A stretch of 21,227 nucleotides of DNA from a virus. Both the position numbers and the translations under genes were made by a program. Where the stretch lies: positions 1 through 21,227 of IMG/VR virus record IMGVR_UViG_3300030102_001177. The stretch is one strand, 5' to 3'. Positions 128 to 20,739 of this stretch are shown piece by piece (positions within the stretch are counted from its first letter, which is position 1; every line of letters starts with the position of its first letter). The notes under the pieces are model-generated. The model ran no database searches. It was not told the DNA's origin and worked only from the letters and a program-made list of their open reading frames with translations.

Positions 128-557
128 GTATATTAAGCCTTGCACACCAGAGTTAGCTTTGAGTGTAGGGCTTAACCTACGTTACGAAGACAGACGAGAA
201 GCCGAAGAAACCACAGGATTATGTGCGGAGGCTTCTATTCTTCAATCATTTTATGAATCAACTTATTCCGTGTATTTCACGGTTCCCAACGGCAAGGCTG
301 CTGGAGTGGCGGGAGTGACACCGCACAATCTAATATGGATGTTATGTACTGATGCCAGCACAGAATATCCTCATACATTTGTTAAAGAAGCAAAACGCTG
401 GGTAAACAGTTTACTTAATCCTTATTTGTGTAACCAAGCTGATATGCGTAATGAGTCACACATAAAATTATTGAAACTTTTAGGATTTACTTTAGTTAAT
501 TATCATGTCTACAATGGAGTTCCCTTGATACAATTTATTAAACCATGTGTACAGTAG
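90..557 (+). CDS. T7 gp13-like protein with GNAT-type fold
   Basis: 155 residues, close to the size of T7 gp13 (about 138 aa). Visible features are the 'AGVAGVTPHNLIWMLCTD' strand region (residues 71-88) and 'N121-x2-H124-x7-GF133', a pattern typical of the GNAT acetyltransferase fold (N..H..L..LGF). T7 gp13 is needed for virion morphogenesis and has been called an internal virion protein; phage homologues are often labelled acetyltransferase-like, but I know of no proven substrate. The chosen ATG lies inside the end of gp12 (38-nt overlap), with no clear Shine-Dalgarno; a second in-frame ATG at 114 is possible. The gene overlaps the gp14-like gene by 13 nt, suggesting coupled translation. 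Family assignment is firm from motif plus position; enzymatic activity is inference. Confidence 0.75.
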   Translation: MATTTKKDMYEGKYIKPCTPELALSVGLNLRYEDRREAEETTGLCAEASILQSFYESTYSVYFTVPNGKAAGVAGVTPHNLIWMLCTDASTEYPHTFVKEAKRWVNSLLNPYLCNQADMRNESHIKLLKLLGFTLVNYHVYNGVPLIQFIKPCVQ

Positions 558-1303
558 CAGCATTTGCTATTGGTATGGGTGTGACTAAGACTGTTGCTGG
601 AATTGCAGAGCAAAACAGACAACATGCAAATCAAGTCGATGCTGTTAACCGTAGCAATGCTATGGCTAGACAGAACTATATCAATCAAATTACAATATCT
701 GCTTATGAGGATCAACGTAAGGGAGAAGTCTTTACAGCGAAACTACAAGCAGATGCAGCCTCTAGGGCAGCATATTTCAAACAAAAAGAACTTAACCAAG
801 CTGAAGCAACTAGAGCAACTGTTGCTAACGATCAGCAATTAAGAGAAAAAATAAACGAGCAGATGTTTGCTAGTCAAGCAAATCTTGCTAAAGCAATACA
901 AGCACAAGGCACTATACTTGCTAGTGGAATGTCAGCTGGGCAATCTATGCTCTTAGAATTAAATCAAGCTGAACGTGATTTAGGTTTTGCACAAGCACAA
1001 ATAGACGCAACTGTGTTTGATGCTACACGTAATTACGGTATCCAACAATATGGTATTGATCTTTCACAATATTCAGGTGATATGAAGGCTAGAAATTCTA
1101 TTACAACTTCTGCCTCTGTTGCACCATACGCATCATTTATGACACCTAGACCTATTGAACAACAAGCTCCACGTAAACCATCCGCACTTGGCCCCATACT
1201 AAGTGGTATTAGTACTGGATTAGGTACTGCTACTACTCTTGGTGGAAAAGATTACTTTTCAAGTATGGAGATTTTTGGAGGTAAACAAGGAGATAACGTA
1301 TAA
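545..1303 (+). CDS. Internal virion protein, T7 gp14-like
   Basis: 252 residues, somewhat longer than T7 gp14 (196 aa). It begins MCTVAAFAIGMGV, like the short Cys- and Ala-rich hydrophobic start of T7 gp14. A long Gln/Ala-rich helical region follows (about residues 20-165), then a Pro-rich tail and a Gly-rich hydrophobic stretch (SALGPILSGISTGLGTATTL). In T7, gp14 is ejected first and forms the outer-membrane channel of the ejectosome. The start codon falls within the last 13 nt of the gp13-like gene, and the stop is 2 nt before the gp15-like gene, so the block is probably translated as one unit. Assignment rests on N-terminal similarity, composition and position. Confidence 0.75.
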   Translation: MCTVAAFAIGMGVTKTVAGIAEQNRQHANQVDAVNRSNAMARQNYINQITISAYEDQRKGEVFTAKLQADAASRAAYFKQKELNQAEATRATVANDQQLREKINEQMFASQANLAKAIQAQGTILASGMSAGQSMLLELNQAERDLGFAQAQIDATVFDATRNYGIQQYGIDLSQYSGDMKARNSITTSASVAPYASFMTPRPIEQQAPRKPSALGPILSGISTGLGTATTLGGKDYFSSMEIFGGKQGDNV

Positions 1304-1305
1304 CT

Positions 1306-4300
1306 ATGGCATATCAAAAAAGCACACAATTTAGTGGTTTTAGGCAAAGAATTGCAAACGATGATTCTAAACAGTTTAAAGACCTTGCTAAAAATTTAGA
1401 AAAAGAAAACTCTAAAACTCTTAAAGATTTTAACAAAGCAGCAGCTGCACAGATTACAGAAATGGGTCGTGTAAGTAAATTAGAAGCTGCAGCAGATACA
1501 TACGAACTAAACAATTTACGTAAATTTAGTAAAGAATTAGACGGTTTTTTAGATAGTACAATAAAAAATGTTGTTGCTCCTGTATTTGATGCTCAAATGC
1601 AAGATGGTATTAATCAAGGTATATTAGCACAACAGGGTGATGCAGATGCTTTAGATAAAGTACGTCTTAATGATTTACAAGAATTAGAGCTAGAACAAAG
1701 ATCTAATAAAATTGTAGAAGAAACAGAATTTAAAACAGAACAAATAAAAGAAAAATATCAAGAAGATTTACGAAACGATTTACGCACAGAATATAGGTTA
1801 CTTAATCTTAAAAAACAAAATTCTAATTTTGCTAGAGGATACCGTAAAGGTATGCTTATGGAAGCTGCTACTGGTTGGGACGCATACAGAGATAGTGTTT
1901 TGACTAATAGTTCTGATTATGAAATACAAAGTTTAGAAGTAGAACATGAAGGTGAGCGTTATAGAATTGGTGATTATTATAAGATTAAAAATCAAGATGT
2001 AAGAGATAAAATTTTAGCTCGTGTACAGTCTGACTATATAGCTAAAGAAGGTAATGGTTTTAGTAGATTTCTTGTTAACAAACATTTAATAAATCCTATT
2101 ATAGAAAGAACTAATTTATTTCAACAAAAAGAGTTTAAAAAAGAACAGGTTGAGTTAGCACAAGAAAGGTTAAATGATTTAAAAGTTAAATTTGAAACTA
2201 ATTTTGCAGAGTTAGAGACTGATGTAGGGGAAGCTAAAGCTGTTGCTGTTATACAACATGCTCTCAATATATTACCATCTACCATGAAAATGGCTGGTGT
2301 AGAGGGTAGTTACAACCAAGCTGCTAAAGCAAAACTTATAGAAATGTTAACTGATAAAGGTTCATTTTTATATAATGGTAGTTTAGCTAATCAAGATGAC
2401 CAGAACGATATTTTAGATTTTTTTGAAAAACCTTTGTTTTATGTAAAAGGTGTATCTAAAATGGAAGGTAACACAATGAAGTTATCATCTCTTAGTGATC
2501 TAATGGCAGGTGCTATTAATAGGGAACAGTTACAAGCTGCTATGTTAGCAGAACAGTATGAAAGATCAGCTAAAGAAATAGAAGGTAAGAAAATTAATCT
2601 TAAGCAAACTTTAGAAAAAATTAATATTGAATTTAAAGGAGACCCTACTGGTAAAGCTTTAGCATTAAGTCAAGTTATGAATGAGAACTATGGCAAATAT
2701 TGGGCTAAAAATATATTAAGTAATAATATTGATGGTTATGAGGGTGTAGAACCTTATGACGAAAATCAAAGTGTACAGGTACTCCTTGAATTAGAAAAAC
2801 AATATAATGTTGGTGATGAAAAGTACGGTATTATACCCTTATCTTCGATTAATTTAGAACGTATAGATCCCGCAGTGCTAGCAGCATATATAGAAGATGG
2901 TAAGATAGGTGACCCTTATGAGAATGAACCTGGATCTGCAGCAAAACATAAAGGTTACGCAGAAGACATGAATAAATTAGCTGAAGCAATATTTTCTAGA
3001 AACGTAGGTAATGGTTCCTTAACTCAAGCTGATGCTGACCTACAGACAGACAACTTTACTAAGTTTATCAGCCCTTTACTCTTATCTACTGCTCGTGGTT
3101 ATGTAGCCAATAATAATGTCACACTAAACGAAGGATTAGATATGGCATTTAATTATTGGAAAAGTCAACTTCAAGGTTTCAATGGTAAAGCAGCAGATGG
3201 ATGGCAAGAAGGCCCTGTTAATTTAAGGGTAGGAACTGAAGGTTGGGAAAATCAAAAAATATATAAAACTGAAGCTATTGCTATAGCTAGTCCAAAAAAT
3301 TTAAAGCTAAAAGAAAATAATAAATTAAGACTAATAGGAGAAATGTATCATAATAATGAAAGTCCAAATTTATTTGAAAGTAAATTATTTTTTGACAAAA
3401 GTGATTTAGTTTATTTTGATCTTGATAACAAAGGTGATATTCACCCTATATTTCATCGTATGTCTCTTCTTTCAGAAGGAACTACACCTCCAGAATTAAT
3501 ATATAATCAACAAGCTAAGTTACTAGAAAAAGTTACAGGCATGAAGCTAGTAAAAGAGTGGGACGAAAAAACACAAATTAGACTTAATGCTTGGGAAGAA
3601 TTAGACTTAAATCAAAAAAAAGCTCTTGTTAGCGGTGAAACAGAAGGTTTTAATAGAACTTTAATGGGAATAGGTTTTTTCTCTCCTTATAATCTTATGT
3701 CATCTATGGTGACTGAAGAAGGTAAATTACCTTTAAATGGAGAAGAAGCAAATGTTATTTTAAACGAAATGGGTCTATCTGCTATGAAGTTTGATGAGTT
3801 ACTAGCTGACCCTAAATTATTAGAAACTGTATTAAATGCTAAAATTAGAAAAGGTGTAGAATTAACTAAAGACTTAACTAACAACGATAATATTAGAATA
3901 CGTATGGTTGCAGCTTATATGGCAACAGGTGATATTAACAACTGGAATAGTGACGAATACCAAATGTTTACTGCTAAAGTTTTGTCATCATACAAAAGTG
4001 GAGACACCTCTGCTATCGTACCTTTATTAAAAGAATTTAATATGAATGGTAGTTCCTTTAAGGTTGACTACAATATTAATGAAAGTTATATTCACCCAGA
4101 AGGTTCAGTATATAATGAAGAACCAGCAAATAACTTTGAAGGTATATTAGACCAATTATCTAAGTTAGACGCTGAAGGTATCCCACCTCAATTTATTGAT
4201 GTTGCTCCTATAGAAACAGGGGCTGTTAGTGGTTTACTACAACGTATGTTGTCTAAAAATCCTACTCGTGTTGTTAATGAAAAATATAATTCATATATAA

Positions 4301-5064
4301 AATTTAAACAAAATTTAGAAGATAAAAGAAACATTTTTCAACAACTTGAAGGTAAAGGAAATATAAATGCTGGTGTATTTTATAATTCATTACGTAGAGT
4401 TTTAGGAGATGAGAAGTACAATGCAATTAATGCACAGGCTGGAGAGTTATTTAGTCGAGGTCGTTTTGTTACTAAAGATAAAGCTTTGATACATGTATTA
4501 GTACAACAACCAGAGTTTGCTAATTTAGATATAGCTGATAAATACCTTAAAAGTTTAAATATGAAACTAACTGTCGATCCTAAACGATATGATGTTGGAG
4601 GTGATCTTGTAGGTAACATATCTAAAGACGATTTGATAGGTATACGTGGTTTCCCTAACGCTTTTGATAGAACTCAAGGAGTAGTGTCTATTAGAAAAGA
4701 TGCTTACCCAGATTGGTATAGATTCTTTCAAGATGCAAATGCAAACGGTCATAAGTTTGGTATAAATGACGGTTACAGAACTAATAAGCAACAAGCAAAA
4801 TTATTAGAAGAAAAAGAAAAGAAAAATTTAGGTAAAGATGTTAAACAGCCTGGAAAATCTAATCATAACGCAGGCGTATCCTTAGATTTAGATTGGGCTA
4901 CTGAGGCAGATTATCAATGGTTATTAGATAATTATAAAAATTATAATTTATGTCCACACACAGGTACACCAAGTTTAGACATGAACAGCGGTAACAAAGC
5001 TGGAGAAATCGAAGCATGGCATTGGAGTTGGGATCCTACGGGATCATGTAACCTAGAACGATAA
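1306..5064 (+). CDS. Internal virion protein, T7 gp15-like, with C-terminal M15 peptidase domain
   Basis: 1252 residues, far longer than T7 gp15 (about 747 aa). Most of the protein is charged and helical with no motif I recognise; position between gp14- and gp16-like genes gives the gp15 assignment. Residues about 1130-1250 look like a zinc peptidase of family M15 (VanY / L-Ala-D-Glu endolysin type): 'GINDGYRT' with the substrate-binding Arg, then S1185-N-H1187-N-A-G1190-V-S-L-D1194 matching SxHxxGxAxD (A replaced by S), then E1236-A-W-H1239-W, which supplies the catalytic Glu and third zinc ligand. The motif set is complete, so activity on peptidoglycan cross-peptides is likely. In T7 gp15 lines the periplasmic conduit; here it may also cut the wall during entry. 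AAGGAG at 1287-1292 precedes the ATG by 13 nt, longer than usual. Confidence 0.8.
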   Translation: MAYQKSTQFSGFRQRIANDDSKQFKDLAKNLEKENSKTLKDFNKAAAAQITEMGRVSKLEAAADTYELNNLRKFSKELDGFLDSTIKNVVAPVFDAQMQDGINQGILAQQGDADALDKVRLNDLQELELEQRSNKIVEETEFKTEQIKEKYQEDLRNDLRTEYRLLNLKKQNSNFARGYRKGMLMEAATGWDAYRDSVLTNSSDYEIQSLEVEHEGERYRIGDYYKIKNQDVRDKILARVQSDYIAKEGNGFSRFLVNKHLINPIIERTNLFQQKEFKKEQVELAQERLNDLKVKFETNFAELETDVGEAKAVAVIQHALNILPSTMKMAGVEGSYNQAAKAKLIEMLTDKGSFLYNGSLANQDDQNDILDFFEKPLFYVKGVSKMEGNTMKLSSLSDLMAGAINREQLQAAMLAEQYERSAKEIEGKKINLKQTLEKINIEFKGDPTGKALALSQVMNENYGKYWAKNILSNNIDGYEGVEPYDENQSVQVLLELEKQYNVGDEKYGIIPLSSINLERIDPAVLAAYIEDGKIGDPYENEPGSAAKHKGYAEDMNKLAEAIFSRNVGNGSLTQADADLQTDNFTKFISPLLLSTARGYVANNNVTLNEGLDMAFNYWKSQLQGFNGKAADGWQEGPVNLRVGTEGWENQKIYKTEAIAIASPKNLKLKENNKLRLIGEMYHNNESPNLFESKLFFDKSDLVYFDLDNKGDIHPIFHRMSLLSEGTTPPELIYNQQAKLLEKVTGMKLVKEWDEKTQIRLNAWEELDLNQKKALVSGETEGFNRTLMGIGFFSPYNLMSSMVTEEGKLPLNGEEANVILNEMGLSAMKFDELLADPKLLETVLNAKIRKGVELTKDLTNNDNIRIRMVAAYMATGDINNWNSDEYQMFTAKVLSSYKSGDTSAIVPLLKEFNMNGSSFKVDYNINESYIHPEGSVYNEEPANNFEGILDQLSKLDAEGIPPQFIDVAPIETGAVSGLLQRMLSKNPTRVVNEKYNSYIKFKQNLEDKRNIFQQLEGKGNINAGVFYNSLRRVLGDEKYNAINAQAGELFSRGRFVTKDKALIHVLVQQPEFANLDIADKYLKSLNMKLTVDPKRYDVGGDLVGNISKDDLIGIRGFPNAFDRTQGVVSIRKDAYPDWYRFFQDANANGHKFGINDGYRTNKQQAKLLEEKEKKNLGKDVKQPGKSNHNAGVSLDLDWATEADYQWLLDNYKNYNLCPHTGTPSLDMNSGNKAGEIEAWHWSWDPTGSCNLER

Positions 5065-5068
5065 AAAC

Positions 5069-8000
5069 ATGAACGAAGAAGAATTAATGCGACTCGATAA
5101 TGTCGAGGAGCAAGGGGAGACTACGGTTGATGACCCCGAAAGGTTTACTAAATACACAACGTCTGAGGTAAACAAACATAGTGAAGATAGCCAAGCTCTT
5201 TTAGAAGCAGCTCAACGAGATCAAGAAGCTGCTGCTGCAATAGCACAACAGGAAGCACAAGCAGCTGAAGGTACGAACCCTCAAGGTTTGTTACCAGATG
5301 GCCCTGTAAATTTTTTAGGTGAAACTGCCAAAGGTGTTTATGGTGGTTTAACAGATGCTGTTGAAAGTGCAGGTAGTTTTTTAGATCTTACGGGAGATAC
5401 AATTTCTGCTACTGCTAACAGAATTATGGGTTTAAACCAATCATACGGTAATAACCCATTTAATTTTAAAGAGTATAGAAAAGCACAAGAGCTTGGTATA
5501 GGTGGGGCACAACCTGGAATCTTAAATGTACCAGATAGGTTTCAACCTGAGACTTTATCTGGTTATGGTGATTTAGTTAGAGGATTATCAGAGTTTGGTT
5601 TTCTACTATATGCTACAGGAGGTGCTGCAAAGGTACTAAAACCTGCTACTACATTACGAAAAGCTGCTGTAATACAGAACAAAATAGGTAAAAATTTACT
5701 TGCAGGGGCAGTAAAAAGTAAAACACCTATTATAAGTAAACTTGCACAAACAAGGAAAGGTGCTAGATTTATTAAATTTTTACCAAAAAATACTGGTAAA
5801 TTAAGTAATATAGCATTTGAAGGGGGTGTTGCTGATCTTATATCATCATCCTCTGATTATGGTAACCTAGCAAATTTAATAGATGAGTATGCACCTTGGT
5901 TACCACTTTCAGAATTTTTGTCTGTTGATCCAGATGAGGATAATCCTTGGACAGCTAGAATTAAAACTGTCTTTGCGGGGGCTGGGGCTAACATAGTTGC
6001 TCATTATTTAATAGCTTTCGGTAAAGCTAGGTTTGCTGCTATACGTAAACGTAAATCTGGAGCAAGCATAGATGAAGCTAACGTACATGCAAATGGTGTG
6101 TTAGATGAAAGGTTAAAAAACGAAGTTAGAAATGAGTATAAACAACGTGAAGAATTAAAGAAAGATGCTGCAGTTGATGGTCGTGGTATACCTCCAGATC
6201 CTTGGGAAGACCATGTTGTTGGTAATTTAGATGAAGAACTAGGTAAGATGTATGTACACCTTACTAAAGGTAATTTACAAGATGTTATTGGCAATGATAT
6301 TTTCTTTCATGGTAGTGGTAGAGGACTCCCAGGAGATTTTCCATATTATGTAAGAGATGGTCGTAGATGGTCTGATGATAACTTAATGGGCAATGGTTTT
6401 TATACTGTTGATGATATTACGGTTGCTGCTGATGCTAGACCTCAAGGACAGGGACTTACAATTAGCATGGATGCTAGTGGTAAGAAAAAAGTTATGTACA
6501 GAGTTAACGAAAGAGAACCTGTAAACTTTTTTGATGCTGATAAACAATTTGATTTTGATGGTACAGATCCAGAAATTGCTGCATTTAAACGTGCAGGGTT
6601 TCTTCAAGAAAGAATAACAGATAAGGGTTTAGAGCTAGGCCCAGGACTTAGAAATCCCGAAGGCAACCCAGAGTTTGTGTCTGCATGGCCAACAGAGGGT
6701 AGTATAAGTTATTCTGATTATGTCCAAAGAATTAAAGATGAACAGTTATATCCTCGTGAAGAAGTTACACAGGTATTAGATACTATACATTCTGACTTAC
6801 AAGAGTTAGGGTATGGAGGTATACAGTACACAGCTAATCATGGTGAAAAAACACATAAAGTTAGAGTATACTGGAACCCAGATACTCAGATAGAACTTGA
6901 CAAATATCGTTTAAGAAATACCTTAGATCCAGACGTATCTACTGATTTACCTATATTTGACAGTAGAGGGTTTGGAGTACGACCACCTAGAAAACCTTGG
7001 CAAACAAACATAGAAGCTGGTAGAGGATTAGAAGGTAGTCGTGGGGCAGAATATTTAATAAATAGATTAAGAAAAAAATTTGTTATTGATGGTTTAGATT
7101 CAACTGAAGTAGAAGCTATCGAAGATTTTATCAACATGATGGGTGATAGGTTTTTCGGTGATGTATCTTTATCTATAACAAATAAATTAGGTGTTCAAGG
7201 TAGATTTAATTTTGGTAATAAACTTGTAGAAATACGTAGACAAATATTTGAAACAGGTGATTTTACCCAAACTATGATACATGAATTGTGGCATACGTTA
7301 TCTAGATATTTACCTGCAAAAGATGTTAAAAAATTAGGTGTAGAGTTTAAAAATCGTAAAGCTAAATGGTTAGCTGCAGGTGGTAAAGATGTAGAGTTAT
7401 TTAAAAAAGGTAGATACACACCTTCAAATTATCGTTACAAAAATTTAGACGAATATTTTGCTGAGACTATGTCAGATGAATTTGACATGTTTATGGTAAA
7501 TTATGACCAGCTAGCTCCCGAAGGTACATTTAAACGTATAACTCAAGAGGTTGCAATATTTGTAAAGGATTTGTATGCTTCTGTTGCTTCACGTTTAGGT
7601 GGCAGTCAAACTAGACGTATATTTACAAATTATCGTAAACAACTTTACGAAAATATGCAACGTAAATACACATTAGAATTAGAACAACAGGGTTATGGTG
7701 GATGGGATCCATTTATTGATGATGATGATTTTATTACAACTAACCTTGATGAGTTTGACAATGCTGAAAATAAAAATGGATTTAAAAGTCCTAGAGCTGA
7801 AGATTTAGAAAACAAAGCTGTACAGAAAGGTCAAGAAATAGGTGATCCTTGGTTTGATGAAGAAGGTGCAACTTACAGTGATACTTTTGGTAGTAAACAA
7901 GTTGACCCAGATCGTAACCCTAATATGTTTGGTGAACAGGATAAAACCTTTGTACCAGATGATAATAAAGACTTACAAGGTAAAGCTACTAGAGTTGTTA

Positions 8001-10741
8001 AGGAAGTACTAGACGAAGGTACAACTAATTCACAGGTACTAATACATAGACAGATAGAAAGAATGGCTGACGGTAGCGAGTCACTTTATAAATTTATTAA
8101 AGAATTTTCCGAAAAATTAGCCAACGAAATTTTTGACAATAAATTAAACTCATTTGACTATAAAAAAGTACAAGCTGCAATCTTACGTAAATCTGAAGAG
8201 TTATATTCTAGAGTAAATGCTGACGTAGCAGAGGGTACAAACAAGAATTTTATGTCTTATTTTGATCCTAAACGAAAGGATAATTACATAGATTATATGA
8301 CTGATGGTAACCAAGTTGTTACTGGTACGCCAGAACAAAAGGTTGCTTTGGAGATGGTTATACAAACATTGTCTAAAAGAGCTTCTCTATACGCTACAGG
8401 AGCACTAGAACTACCTCCAGGGGCAGCTGGTGTTCGTCAAATGCAACACGCCAACAAATCGCTTGTACTAGCCTTAAAAGAGTACAAGAAGATGAGCTAC
8501 ATGGCAGGTAGTACACTAGAAAGATTTAAAAACAAACTTATGCCAGAGGATGCTAGAAAACTTATAGAAGGTGAATTAGCTAGTATAGATGAGGCATATG
8601 ATGAGTTTTATAAAGAACTAGATAGAATAGCAAAAAATGGTAATAATGTAGAACGTACTACACTTATGGAAATACAAGCCTTATCTGGAGGTAGCGTGAC
8701 TACCCTTGATGATGCTTTGCAATGGGTTAAAGTAAGAACAAAAGGTGGTAGATACAAAGGTCAATCTTATAGATCTGGTATTAGAGAACAAGCTAAAGGA
8801 ATGTTTTATAATTCTGTATTAAGTAGTTTACGTACACCTATTAAAGCTATCGTTGGTACTAATTTTATTGCATTGTTACGTCCTTTTCAAACTTATGTAG
8901 GAGCTGCATTACAACGTAATAAGAAAGAAATGGTTATTGCTGCAGCACAGTTACATGGTATCAGTGAAATGTTTGCAGAAGGTTTTAAAATGTTTAGACA
9001 TAACTGGGATTTAGGTATAAACCGTAAAGCTCAAAGTTATGTTGGTAAATTTAACGTAGAAACAAATTCAGCAGAATTTAAACAATTAGGTAAATTTGTA
9101 GAAATGTATGGTACGGATTCTGAGAAAACGTATTATGCTATAGCTAATTTTATGTTAGATTTTAACAACTCACCTTGGGTACGTTATTCACAAAATGCTA
9201 TGGGTGCAGGTGACGCATTAGCTAGAACTTTAATTGGTAGGTTTGAAATGCGTATGAGAGCAGCTAGAAAAGCAATAGATGATGGTGTAGATCTTGATGA
9301 TGTAGTGGAAGTAGCAACTAGAACTGAAAAGAATTTTAGAGAACAAATATTTAAAAAAGACGCATATGATATGTGGGTTGTATCAGACAGAGCTGCAGCC
9401 CTAGCAGGTGACGAAACTGCCTTAACTAAACCATTAAGTGGTAATTTAAAAGGTTTAGAATCACTTTCATCAATAACTGGTTTTAAAAATTTCTTTCCAT
9501 TTGTGCGTACAGGTTTTAATGCGTTAGATTTAACATGGCAACATACCCCTGGATTAGCTAGATTCAATAAAAAATACAAAGATTTAATGGAATTTGCTAA
9601 TAATGGTGGTAAAAATGCTAAACAATTAGAGGTAGAGTACGGTATTAGAAAAGAAGATATACCTCAAGCTATAGCTTTAATGAAAGGTAGAGTAGCAACA
9701 GGTACTATGTTAAGTTTTATGGCGTTTACTGCTGCTGTAACAGGTAACATGACAGGTACACTACCATACGATAAAGAAACTAGAGATCACTGGAGAAACA
9801 ATAAAATACAACCTAACTCTTTTAAAATAGGTAACACTTACATATCTTATGGTGATATGGAACCATATAACACTATTTTATCTGCTGTTGCTAACGTAGC
9901 TGGTTATCAAAACTCGTTAGGAGAAGCAGTTAGAGATGATATGTTACAAAAAATACAATTTATGTTTGCTAGTGTAATAGTTGATAAATCTATGTTAGCA
10001 GGTGTTGACGATCTTGCTCAAGTATTTAGTGGTAATATCAGTGAAATACAATTAGGTAGAATAGCAGCAAAATTTGTTAGATCACAAGTACCTTATTCTG
10101 GTCTTATGGGTCAGTTAGGTAACTTAATGGATGAAAATGAAAGAATAACCAGAGGATTTTGGGAAACCACTATAAGAAGAGACATAGGATTTAAGTCATT
10201 TCTAGCTCCTAAGTACGATATACTAACTCCTGGAAATAAAGCTCAACGATTTACACCATATACTTCTAATCCATTGTTAAAACTATGGAACTCATTAAGT
10301 CCTGTTGCTATATCTTACGCTGCTGGAGATCCTGTAAAGGAAGCGTTGCAAAGTATTAGTTATAATTTACCAGAGGCTTTGAGAACTTGGAAAGGTGAGG
10401 AATTAAATTCTTTTGAACAATCTGAATTACAAAAATATTTAGCTGAAAGTAATTTATATGCTAGATTAAAGACACTTGTTACGAGTAAACAATGGAAAGA
10501 TGCTGTACAACAGTATAAAGATGATGGTTTACTTGCGAGAGAAGGTATGCGTCCTGTAGATCAACGGTTTTATTTACAAGTACAAAGTATATTTTTAAAC
10601 GAAAAGAAAAAAGCAATAACTAAATTACGTGCTAATAACCCTGATTTATATGCACGTATTAAAGATAGAGAACTTAGAAGGTTCTATAGTAAGAAAGGTA
10701 ACTATAACGTATTAAATGAATTAAAAAAACACGGAATTTAA
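5069..10741 (+). CDS. Internal virion protein, T7 gp16-like, with ADP-ribosyltransferase-like and metallopeptidase-like domains
   Basis: 1890 residues against about 1318 in T7 gp16. The N-terminus is acidic and Ala/Gln-rich and shows no transglycosylase motif. Residues about 400-610 resemble the ADP-ribosyltransferase domains of polyvalent phage proteins: FFH414GSG, then GNGFY445TVDD, then LGYGGIQY (581-587) and a closing 'VRVYWNPDTQIEL', which mirrors the family's 'GYDGI..Y...V.F.P.QI'. The usual third acidic residue is not obvious (Q586 or E593). Residues about 700-830 hold H738-E-L-W-H742, a zinc-protease HExxH, followed by NLDE795YFAE799, a plausible third ligand. Hydrophobic stretches occur near residues 1545-1567 and in the N-terminal 350. 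In T7 gp16 is ejected and spans the inner membrane, pulling in DNA. The gene starts 4 nt after the gp15-like stop. gp16 identity comes from size and order; domain calls come from motifs; targets are unknown. Confidence 0.75.
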   Translation: MNEEELMRLDNVEEQGETTVDDPERFTKYTTSEVNKHSEDSQALLEAAQRDQEAAAAIAQQEAQAAEGTNPQGLLPDGPVNFLGETAKGVYGGLTDAVESAGSFLDLTGDTISATANRIMGLNQSYGNNPFNFKEYRKAQELGIGGAQPGILNVPDRFQPETLSGYGDLVRGLSEFGFLLYATGGAAKVLKPATTLRKAAVIQNKIGKNLLAGAVKSKTPIISKLAQTRKGARFIKFLPKNTGKLSNIAFEGGVADLISSSSDYGNLANLIDEYAPWLPLSEFLSVDPDEDNPWTARIKTVFAGAGANIVAHYLIAFGKARFAAIRKRKSGASIDEANVHANGVLDERLKNEVRNEYKQREELKKDAAVDGRGIPPDPWEDHVVGNLDEELGKMYVHLTKGNLQDVIGNDIFFHGSGRGLPGDFPYYVRDGRRWSDDNLMGNGFYTVDDITVAADARPQGQGLTISMDASGKKKVMYRVNEREPVNFFDADKQFDFDGTDPEIAAFKRAGFLQERITDKGLELGPGLRNPEGNPEFVSAWPTEGSISYSDYVQRIKDEQLYPREEVTQVLDTIHSDLQELGYGGIQYTANHGEKTHKVRVYWNPDTQIELDKYRLRNTLDPDVSTDLPIFDSRGFGVRPPRKPWQTNIEAGRGLEGSRGAEYLINRLRKKFVIDGLDSTEVEAIEDFINMMGDRFFGDVSLSITNKLGVQGRFNFGNKLVEIRRQIFETGDFTQTMIHELWHTLSRYLPAKDVKKLGVEFKNRKAKWLAAGGKDVELFKKGRYTPSNYRYKNLDEYFAETMSDEFDMFMVNYDQLAPEGTFKRITQEVAIFVKDLYASVASRLGGSQTRRIFTNYRKQLYENMQRKYTLELEQQGYGGWDPFIDDDDFITTNLDEFDNAENKNGFKSPRAEDLENKAVQKGQEIGDPWFDEEGATYSDTFGSKQVDPDRNPNMFGEQDKTFVPDDNKDLQGKATRVVKEVLDEGTTNSQVLIHRQIERMADGSESLYKFIKEFSEKLANEIFDNKLNSFDYKKVQAAILRKSEELYSRVNADVAEGTNKNFMSYFDPKRKDNYIDYMTDGNQVVTGTPEQKVALEMVIQTLSKRASLYATGALELPPGAAGVRQMQHANKSLVLALKEYKKMSYMAGSTLERFKNKLMPEDARKLIEGELASIDEAYDEFYKELDRIAKNGNNVERTTLMEIQALSGGSVTTLDDALQWVKVRTKGGRYKGQSYRSGIREQAKGMFYNSVLSSLRTPIKAIVGTNFIALLRPFQTYVGAALQRNKKEMVIAAAQLHGISEMFAEGFKMFRHNWDLGINRKAQSYVGKFNVETNSAEFKQLGKFVEMYGTDSEKTYYAIANFMLDFNNSPWVRYSQNAMGAGDALARTLIGRFEMRMRAARKAIDDGVDLDDVVEVATRTEKNFREQIFKKDAYDMWVVSDRAAALAGDETALTKPLSGNLKGLESLSSITGFKNFFPFVRTGFNALDLTWQHTPGLARFNKKYKDLMEFANNGGKNAKQLEVEYGIRKEDIPQAIALMKGRVATGTMLSFMAFTAAVTGNMTGTLPYDKETRDHWRNNKIQPNSFKIGNTYISYGDMEPYNTILSAVANVAGYQNSLGEAVRDDMLQKIQFMFASVIVDKSMLAGVDDLAQVFSGNISEIQLGRIAAKFVRSQVPYSGLMGQLGNLMDENERITRGFWETTIRRDIGFKSFLAPKYDILTPGNKAQRFTPYTSNPLLKLWNSLSPVAISYAAGDPVKEALQSISYNLPEALRTWKGEELNSFEQSELQKYLAESNLYARLKTLVTSKQWKDAVQQYKDDGLLAREGMRPVDQRFYLQVQSIFLNEKKKAITKLRANNPDLYARIKDRELRRFYSKKGNYNVLNELKKHGI

Positions 10742-18686: not shown

Positions 18687-19012
18687 TACCAGTACTTCCA
18701 ACTTATAAAGATTACAATTACAACTTAATAGTCATGACATCAACAGATGCTAAAAAACTCTGGAGAAAAGCTATTAAGGAGGCAAACAACTATGAATGTA
18801 TTTATTGTGGAGAAAGACATCATGAATTTGATCTTACCATTGACCATGTACGCCCCAGATGTAATGGGGGTGGTCATATGTCTAACAACTGCGTTCCAGC
18901 GTGTCAAAGATGTAATCAATCGAAAGGAAGTAATAATTGGTTGACGTGGTTTCGTACTACGTTTCCACCTAACCCTTTTAGGGAACAACTAATAACAAAT
19001 TGGATTAAATGA
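18683..19012 (+). CDS. HNH endonuclease
   Basis: 109 residues with a complete HNH signature: C39-I-Y-C42, then TID54H55VRPRCNGGG, then N69-C-V-P-A-C74-Q-R-C77-N78. The two CxxC pairs form the structural zinc site and D54-H55 with N69 and N78 form the metal-dependent nuclease centre. It likely nicks or cuts DNA. It lies between small and large terminase genes, a place where HNH proteins in other tailed phages assist terminase cleavage, or where homing-type nucleases settle. Start ATG 18683 gives an ATGA overlap with the upstream gene; ATG 18734 is an alternative. The stop overlaps the large terminase ATG by 4 nt. Confidence 0.88.
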   Translation: MIPVLPTYKDYNYNLIVMTSTDAKKLWRKAIKEANNYECIYCGERHHEFDLTIDHVRPRCNGGGHMSNNCVPACQRCNQSKGSNNWLTWFRTTFPPNPFREQLITNWIK

Positions 19013-20739
19013 GTTTAGAAAAAGAGTTACATAAAGATTTTAGAATATTTCTAACAGCTATATGGACTCACTTAAATTTACCAATACCAACCAGAGCACA
19101 GTTATGTATCGCTGAGTATTTACAACAAGGCCCAAAACGATTACAGATACAAGCGTTTCGTGGTGTAGGTAAATCTTGGATCACCGCTGCATTTGTGCTG
19201 TGGACTTTATTTAACGATCCAAACAAAAAAATTATGGTGGTGTCTGCATCTAAAGACAGAGCAGACTCCTTTTCTATATTTTGTCAAAGGTTAATTATGG
19301 AGGTACCTTGGTTATCACACCTAAAACCTAAAAACGATGACCAAAGATGGTCACGTATATCGTTTGATGTGGGGCCAGCAGCTCCGCACCAAGCACCCTC
19401 AGTAAAGTCTGTGGGTATTACAGGACAGCTAACAGGATCTAGAGCTGACCTTATGGTACTAGACGATGTCGAAGTACCTAATAACAGTATGACGGAGCTA
19501 CAACGTGAAAAACTCTTACAACTTGTTACTGAGTGTGAGTCTATTCTTACTCCTAAACGTGACTCTCGTATTATGTTTCTTGGAACTCCTCAAACGACTT
19601 TCACTGTTTACAATAAATTAAGAGAACGTAGTTATAGACCTTTTGTGTGGCCTGCTAGGTATCCTCGCAAGGTAGCCATGTATGATGGTTTACTTGCACC
19701 GCAACTAGCAGAGGATTTAGAAAACAAAAACGATCTTACGTGGGAACCTACAGATACACGTTTTAAAGAAGCTGATCTACTAGAAAGAGAAGCATCTATG
19801 GGTAGATCAAACTTTATGTTGCAGTTTATGCTAGATACTAGCTTATCTGACGCAGAAAAGTTCCCATTAAAGTTTGCAGATCTTATAGTAAATCCAGTAA
19901 ATCCTACACATGCACCAGAAAACATAATATGGTGCTCAGACCCAGACAATGTTATAAAAGATTTACCTTGTGTGGGGCTCCCAGGGGATTATTACTACAA
20001 ACCTATGCAGATACAAGGTAAGTGGCAAGAATATAGTGAAACTATTTGCAGTGTTGACCCATCTGGGCGTGGAGCTGACGAAACAGTAGCTTGTTTTTTA
20101 TCACAACTAAATGGTATCATGTATTTGCATGAAATATACGCATCACAAGACGGTTATAGTGATGACACATTATTAGCAATACTTAAAAGATGCAGAAAAT
20201 ATGATGCGAGTACACTGCTCATCGAGAGCAACTTTGGCGATGGTATTGTATCAGAGCTATTTAAAAAACACTGTCAAACGACAAAAACAAACATAAATAT
20301 AGAGGAAACAAGAGCAAATGTTCGCAAAGAAGACAGAATCATTGATAGTCTTGAGCCTGTGTTTAATCAGCATAGGTTGGTGGTTGACCCCAAAGTTATT
20401 GCATGGGATTATGAATCGAATACTGAGAGGGCAGCTGAAAATAGATACCAATATATGCTTGCCTACCAAATCTCAAGAATGTGCAGGGAAAAAGGTGCCG
20501 TTCGACATGACGACAGAATTGATGCCCTTGCCCAAGGAGTCAAATATTACACCGATGCCCTTGCCCTTTCAGCTGAACAACAAATAAAAGACAGAAGACA
20601 TGAGGAATGGTTAGATCATCTAGAAGCATGGATGGATGACCCAGAGTGTGAAGCAAATCATATTGCACTAGGAATGTCCTTAGACCAAAAAAGAGAGGCT
20701 AGAGGGGCTACTAGAAGCCACTCACACTCATGGATGTAG
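19009..20739 (+). CDS. Large terminase subunit (DNA maturase B, T7 gp19-like)
   Basis: 576 residues, matching T7 gp19 (586 aa). The N-terminal ATPase has Walker A R51-G-V-G-K55-S56, Walker B LMVLD152D153VE155, and a likely coupling motif MFLGTPQT. The C-terminal RNase H-like nuclease has D350 in 'VDPSGRGADETV', then LLIESNFGDG, and a closing HD501D502RID505AL. It powers DNA translocation into the prohead and cuts the concatemer at the terminal repeats. It begins with an ATGA overlap to the HNH gene and is the last long gene of the window, as gp19 is in T7. All key residues are present. Confidence 0.95.
   Translation: MSLEKELHKDFRIFLTAIWTHLNLPIPTRAQLCIAEYLQQGPKRLQIQAFRGVGKSWITAAFVLWTLFNDPNKKIMVVSASKDRADSFSIFCQRLIMEVPWLSHLKPKNDDQRWSRISFDVGPAAPHQAPSVKSVGITGQLTGSRADLMVLDDVEVPNNSMTELQREKLLQLVTECESILTPKRDSRIMFLGTPQTTFTVYNKLRERSYRPFVWPARYPRKVAMYDGLLAPQLAEDLENKNDLTWEPTDTRFKEADLLEREASMGRSNFMLQFMLDTSLSDAEKFPLKFADLIVNPVNPTHAPENIIWCSDPDNVIKDLPCVGLPGDYYYKPMQIQGKWQEYSETICSVDPSGRGADETVACFLSQLNGIMYLHEIYASQDGYSDDTLLAILKRCRKYDASTLLIESNFGDGIVSELFKKHCQTTKTNINIEETRANVRKEDRIIDSLEPVFNQHRLVVDPKVIAWDYESNTERAAENRYQYMLAYQISRMCREKGAVRHDDRIDALAQGVKYYTDALALSAEQQIKDRRHEEWLDHLEAWMDDPECEANHIALGMSLDQKREARGATRSHSHSWM

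What the first reader, a model, noticed from the sequence alone, without database searches (positions are those of the whole stretch)
6260..6900. ADP-ribosyltransferase-like domain inside an ejection protein
Seen: FFH414GSG, GNGFY445T and LGYGGIQY with a closing NPDTQI in the gp16-like protein. Known: this order of H, Y and 'GYDGI...F.P.QI' marks ART domains of phage polyvalent proteins, and T7 gp16 enters the cell with the DNA. Inference: the phage may inject a modifying enzyme before any gene is expressed, for example to modify host RNA polymerase or a defence protein, much as T4 does with its injected Alt. The third catalytic residue is uncertain (Q586 or E593).
Basis: partly seen in the sequence, partly recalled or inferred. 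Interest (0 to 1): 0.78.

Follow-up and report, generated by a model that had tools for sequence, protein, structure and literature searches.

The report
Ejected phage protein with ADP-ribosyltransferase domain
A virus of marine photosynthetic bacteria carries, inside the protein it pushes into the cell ahead of its DNA, a domain that looks like an enzyme that tags host molecules with ADP-ribose; the domain lacks the usual third catalytic residue and has an invariant histidine next to that position instead.

Summary
Residues ~404-613 of the 1,890-aa gp16-like ejection protein (window 5069-10741, marine cyanopodovirus) are an ADP-ribosyltransferase (ART) superfamily domain. Relatives exist in 54 collected sequences, most of them in ejection proteins. 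Invariant in all 54 are H414, G415, G441, G443, Y445, Y477, G581, G584 and H596. Profile comparison with Pfam ART-PolyVal members scores 47 against at most 21 for 60 shuffles. The best solved-structure match is the A-4L cyanophage pre-ejectosome protein, followed by weak matches that include many known ARTs. The glutamate position reads V598 (53/54 Val) and H596 lies two residues upstream. This is a glutamate-less variant of the H-Y-[EDQ] type, not an Alt-type (R-S-E) enzyme. It is part of a ~500-residue insert: related isolates lack it, sister lineages carry the ART alone, and one clade adds an HELWH zincin. Delivery into the host is inferred from T7 gp16 biology. Activity and target are not shown. 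The most likely function is mono-ADP-ribosylation of a host factor at DNA entry; a non-enzymatic structural role is the main rival.

The parts
5069..10741 (+). gp16-like internal virion (ejection) protein, 1890 aa
   Evidence: phrog_6651 internal virion protein E=1e-251 over residues 29-1880; gp13-gp14-gp15-gp16-tail fibre order; 37% identity over the core to P-SSP10 gp16
6278..6907 (+). ART-like domain (residues ~404-613)
   Evidence: profile family of 54 members; hhalign to ART-PolyVal with shuffle control; AF2 model and fold search
6308..6310 (+). H414, motif I (HG[STA])
   Evidence: invariant 54/54
6401..6403 (+). Y445, motif II (GxG[FL]Y)
   Evidence: invariant 54/54
6497..6499 (+). Y477, second invariant tyrosine (VYR)
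   Evidence: invariant 54/54
6809..6820 (+). GYGG (581-584), start of the last catalytic hairpin
   Evidence: G581 and G584 invariant 54/54
6854..6862 (+). H596-K597-V598 at the head of the last catalytic strand; V598 is at the usual Glu register, H596 two residues upstream
   Evidence: H596 54/54, V598 53/54; register from hhalign to ART-PolyVal
7049..7648 (+). zincin-like metallopeptidase region (residues ~661-860)
   Evidence: HELWH and DE[YWF]FAE invariant in the 7 aligned relatives; weak Pfam zincin matches, best ATLF 0.001 and SprT-like 0.019
7280..7294 (+). HELWH (738-742), predicted zinc site
7781..10723 (+). conserved gp16 core (residues ~905-1885)
   Evidence: aligned to isolates; core tree
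1306..5064 (+). gp15-like protein with C-terminal VanY/M15 peptidase domain
   Evidence: PF02557 1.1e-9 at residues 1128-1243; position between gp14 and gp16
545..1303 (+). gp14-like internal virion protein
   Evidence: PF24072 9.8e-7; phrog_15746 7e-35

Best explanation
Residues ~404-613 form an ADP-ribosyltransferase-fold domain inserted into the gp16-type ejection protein of a marine cyanopodovirus. It is packaged in the inner core, ejected with the DNA, and most likely acts as a mono-ADP-ribosyltransferase on a host macromolecule before phage genes are expressed. It would bind NAD through H414, Y445 and Y477 and work without the canonical glutamate, as the H-Y-I/L mono-ART PARPs do, perhaps with invariant H596 taking part. 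Shown by computation: family, fold class, invariant residues, position in the ejection protein, purifying selection. Inferred: packaging, cytoplasmic exposure, NAD use, transferase activity. Unknown: target.
For: 54 homologues with invariant H414, Y445, Y477, H596. hhalign to ART-PolyVal score 47.2 against a shuffled maximum of 21.0 (n=60) and 11.7 reversed; to the A-4L/Pf-WMP3 domain 40.3 against 18.8. Pfam DUF3990 (an ART-clan family, PMC7955679) in 24/54 members, best 5.8e-7; ART-PolyVal best 7.5e-4. AF2 model pLDDT 71.5, pTM 0.73; top PDB hit is the A-4L pre-ejectosome chain 9k3a_B (E 1.7e-4, prob 1.00), then weak hits including RES, diphtheria toxin, cholix and ParT. gp16 identity: phrog_6651 1e-251 and synteny. 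In T7, gp16-C is placed in the host cytoplasm (PMC8954989). dN/dS in the ART mostly 0.09-0.36. PARPs listed as H-Y-I/L are mono-ARTs; PARP13, listed as inactive, lacks the His (PMC7955679).
Against: The window domain itself has no Pfam or NCBIfam hit, and the members listed with scores are under the Pfam cut-offs. The catalytic acid is absent, so activity cannot be assumed. The fold match is moderate (TMq 0.46) and matches to other solved ARTs are individually not significant (E>0.4). No virion proteomics, topology or activity data were found for any carrier, and no isolate in the phage collection carries this subfamily by sequence.
Confidence: 0.58

Rival explanations
1. The ART fold is kept only as a structural or binding module of the pre-ejectosome (a pseudoenzyme, perhaps binding NAD, nucleic acid or a core partner) and has no transferase activity.
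For: No conserved acid on the catalytic strand. The divergent A-4L and Pf-WMP3 ejection-protein domains also read T rather than E in that strand. The A-4L match falls in a protein resolved inside the capsid. Related phages do without the domain.
Against: The invariant non-glycine residues are H, Y, Y and H, the pattern of a kept active site. A module that can be absent altogether from related gp16s is not needed for the core structure.
Confidence: 0.22
2. It is an NAD-dependent enzyme but not a protein mono-ART: it modifies nucleic acid or a small molecule, or hydrolyses NAD, for example to counter an NAD-based or DNA-end-based host defence at entry.
For: Atypical third position with an invariant His. 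The H-H-h clade of ARTs acts on RNA and small molecules with a hydrophobic third residue (PMC9503650, PMC7955679). gp16-C is DNA-binding in T7 (PMC8954989).
Against: The second motif is Tyr as in the H-Y clade, not His. No sequence evidence points to a specific substrate.
Confidence: 0.15
3. The motifs are a chance resemblance in a helical phage structural protein with no ART relationship.
For: Single-sequence searches with the window domain find nothing; the first AF2 model gave no match.
Against: Profile, shuffle-control, fold and conservation evidence.
Confidence: 0.03

Closest known systems
A-4L ORF27 (PDB 9k3a_B, cyanophage A4 pre-ejectosome) and Pf-WMP3 ORF26
   Same: An ejection protein of a cyanopodovirus with an ART-like domain (HGT, a later Tyr, late NPD strand); best fold match, profile score 40 against at most 19 shuffled.
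   Different: Freshwater Saffermanviridae; ART near the C-terminus (residues ~1420-1606 of 1717 in A-4L) instead of 404-613 of 1890; no His at the head of the last strand. Whether its authors noted an ART could not be checked (paper not held).
ART-PolyVal (PF18760), ARTs of phage polyvalent proteins
   Same: Co-linear H, GxGFY, GYDG and [YF]xP motifs; hhalign prob 91.7; polyvalent ARTs often occur with zincins (PMC5512222).
   Different: The Glu of EYVVF is replaced (V598, with H596 upstream); scores under the Pfam cut-off.
N4-like ART in the vRNAP of Roseovarius Plymouth podovirus 1 (PMC5512222)
   Same: An ART inside a large podovirus protein ejected with the DNA.
   Different: Only weakly matched by the profile (i-E 0.054 at the HGT motif) and reads GEIMVV, keeping an acid at the last strand.
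T4 Alt
   Same: Virion-packaged phage ART that enters with the DNA (PMC9503650).
   Different: R-S-E clade; a free internal protein, not part of an ejectosome subunit.
T7 gp16
   Same: Gene order and role class as inner-core ejection protein.
   Different: No detectable sequence homology to T7 gp16 (hhalign prob 0.3); no lytic transglycosylase match in this gp16, while a VanY domain sits on gp15.

Membership tests
ART superfamily | Split-sheet ART fold | tested here: inconclusive
   AF2 pLDDT 71.5, pTM 0.73; top hit A-4L ejection protein at prob 1.00, then many known ARTs at non-significant E. Homology to ART-PolyVal by profile supports it.
ART superfamily | Motif I His in HG[STA] on strand 1 | tested here: met
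   H414 54/54
ART superfamily | Motif II Tyr in GxG[FL]Y on strand 2 | tested here: met
   Y445 54/54
H-Y-[EDQ] clade of ARTs | Glu, Asp or Gln in motif III | tested here: not met
   V598 at the register (53/54 Val), H596 two before; no conserved acid on the strand
ART-PolyVal PF18760 / DUF3990 PF13151 | Score over the Pfam gathering cut-off | tested here: not met
   best 20.9 of 31.2 and 26.7 of 32.2 bits among members listed with scores; window itself no hit
T4 Alt type (R-S-E clade) | R, S/T, E active-site motifs | tested here: not met
   H and Y in their place
T7-like gp16 internal virion protein | Profile match and gene order gp13-14-15-16-tail fibre | tested here: met
   phrog_6651 1e-251; neighbours identified
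T7-like gp16 internal virion protein | Packaged in the virion and ejected into the cell | not testable with these tools
   inferred from the T7 literature (PMC8954989)
Polyvalent proteins | Large protein joining unrelated enzymatic domains (ART, zincin) | tested here: met
   ART plus HELWH zincin-like region in one gp16; virion delivery itself is inferred
Zincin metallopeptidase | HExxH plus downstream Glu | tested here: met
   HELWH and DE[YWF]FAE invariant in 7 relatives; Pfam support only weak
ART enzyme | NAD-dependent ADP-ribose transfer | not testable with these tools
   needs biochemistry

The most novel reading that the evidence does not exclude
A glutamate-less ART subfamily (H-Y plus an invariant His) is widespread in cyanopodovirus ejection proteins, and the ejectosome itself is a loaded enzyme: the DNA-delivery pore modifies a host target, possibly nucleic-acid ends or a defence protein, at its cytoplasmic mouth during entry, using new catalytic chemistry with H596.
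Probability: 0.25. Interest if true: 0.85.

Novelty: new variant of a known kind. Interest (0 to 1): 0.62.

Why it matters
Virion-delivered ARTs are known (T4 Alt) or predicted (polyvalent proteins, N4-like vRNAP). Here a divergent, glutamate-less ART is built into the core DNA-ejection subunit of viruses of marine picocyanobacteria, kept over deep divergence, and absent from the related cultured phages tested. If active, the first host-modifying act of such an infection would be performed by the injection machine. A solved pre-ejectosome (A-4L) with a matching domain makes the idea directly testable in a cultured host.

Tried and rejected
Window domain alone: no hit in Pfam, PDB sequences or isolate phages. 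First AF2 model from 17 sequences: pLDDT 61, no fold match. Alt-type assignment: rejected on motifs. Q586/E593 as third residue: rejected. N4-like ART as the same family: weak match and E-retaining. Aligning the window gp16 to T7 gp16 to place the ART on one side of the membrane: no significant match; the most hydrophobic segment is 300-318, about 85 residues before the ART, but this settles nothing. NCBIfam hits are scattered and weak, taken as chance. Sequence homology between this zincin and those of the other ART carriers: not detected.

Full report
Observation. The ORF at 5069-10741 (+) encodes 1,890 aa and matches phrog_6651 internal virion protein over nearly its whole length. It lies in the order gp13, gp14, gp15, gp16, tail fibre, with the large terminase at 19009-20739. 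The ordered set does not appear in 5000 shuffles of the protein or in 512 other large ORFs.

Origin. A contig carrying the near-identical gp16 (L015, 97.6%) and five of the six other contigs tested carry psbA, and the terminase is 83% identical to Prochlorococcus phage P-SSP10. The window is therefore taken to be from a marine cyanopodovirus. Against P-SSP10, gp13 is 75% identical but gp14 is 41%, gp16 37% (outside the insert) and gp15 has no BLAST match, so the ejection cassette is far more divergent than its flanks.

What the domain is. Relatives were gathered from viral contigs and one Cyanobium bin contig. In an alignment of 54, nine positions are invariant: H414, G415, G441, G443, Y445, Y477, G581, G584, H596. 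Profile-profile comparison with ART-PolyVal members found in cyanobacterial genomes scores 47.2, against 11.7 for the reversed profile and at most 21.0 for 60 column shuffles; with the A-4L/Pf-WMP3 ejection-protein domain it scores 40.3 against at most 18.8. DUF3990, an ART-clan family (PMC7955679), is hit by 24 of 54 members, best 5.8e-7. An AF2 model from the 54-row alignment (pLDDT 71.5, pTM 0.73) has as best solved match 9k3a_B, the A-4L pre-ejectosome protein (E 1.7e-4, prob 1.00). Lower-ranked, individually non-significant hits include RES, diphtheria toxin, cholix and ParT, all ARTs. Seven predicted viral proteins match below 1e-3, and several lower hits are named ART-PolyVal or PolyVal ADP-ribosyltransferase.

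Active site. Q586 and E593 are not conserved. In the register given by ART-PolyVal the glutamate of EYVVF falls on V598; the invariant H596 is two residues upstream, on the same face of the strand if it alternates regularly. This last point is inference, since model coordinates could not be examined. Human PARPs listed as H-Y-I/L are mono-ARTs, whereas PARP13, listed as inactive, lacks the His (PMC7955679), so absence of the acid does not by itself mean a dead enzyme.

Evolution. The domain sits in a ~500-residue insert absent from P-SSP10-type gp16. On a tree of the gp16 core, ART plus zincin is one clade (support 100), ART alone occurs on both the branch around that clade and in a second clade, and most ART-less proteins group together (quick method, long branches present). 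dN/dS in the ART is mostly 0.09-0.36. The same ART family also occurs in two more divergent phrog_6651 proteins and in a portal-like protein. Phages with the ART have a larger gp15 (1,085-1,313 aa) than nearly all ART-less ones (827-1,111 aa), which is confounded with phylogeny. tblastn with four different members found no isolate phage with this subfamily.

Mechanism. Shown here: ART-superfamily relationship, kept H/Y/Y/H residues, location in the ejection protein, purifying selection. Inferred: packaging and ejection (from T7 and the A-4L structure), exposure in the cytoplasm, NAD use, transferase activity. The neighbouring HELWH zincin could release the ART after entry, as proposed for polyvalent proteins (PMC5512222), but sister lineages have the ART without it, so it is not required. 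The target is unknown. Searches of the open-access library found no report of an ART in a T7-type internal virion protein; the A-4L structure paper was not available to read.

Noticed in passing
window 1306-5064 against P-SSP10: gp15-like protein carries a C-terminal VanY/M15 domain and has no BLAST match to P-SSP10 gp15, although terminase is 83% and gp13 75% identical: the ejection cassette looks swapped or fast-evolving.
   Followed up: partly
window 7280-7294: HELWH zincin-like site next to the ART, present in a single clade of gp16 proteins.
   Followed up: partly
L166 3217-10710, L184 ORF from 3950: Two very large gp16-like proteins (2498 and 2231 aa) with ART followed by HEAFH; L166 was assigned to phrog_6651.
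   Followed up: partly
L104 2728-8319: Portal-like protein (phrog_21) with an ART of this family and HESWH.
   Followed up: no
L195, contig BJHE01000017.1: 44.8-kb contig in a Cyanobium bin with this ART and a T7-type terminase: probably a cyanophage genome binned with its host.
   Followed up: partly
L187 and L186: One ORF holds two copies of the ART domain.
   Followed up: no
L201 10453-11013 (-), L200 6551-7117 (-): A-4L ORF27 and Pf-WMP3 ORF26 carry a divergent ART-like domain near the C-terminus of the ejection protein.
   Followed up: yes
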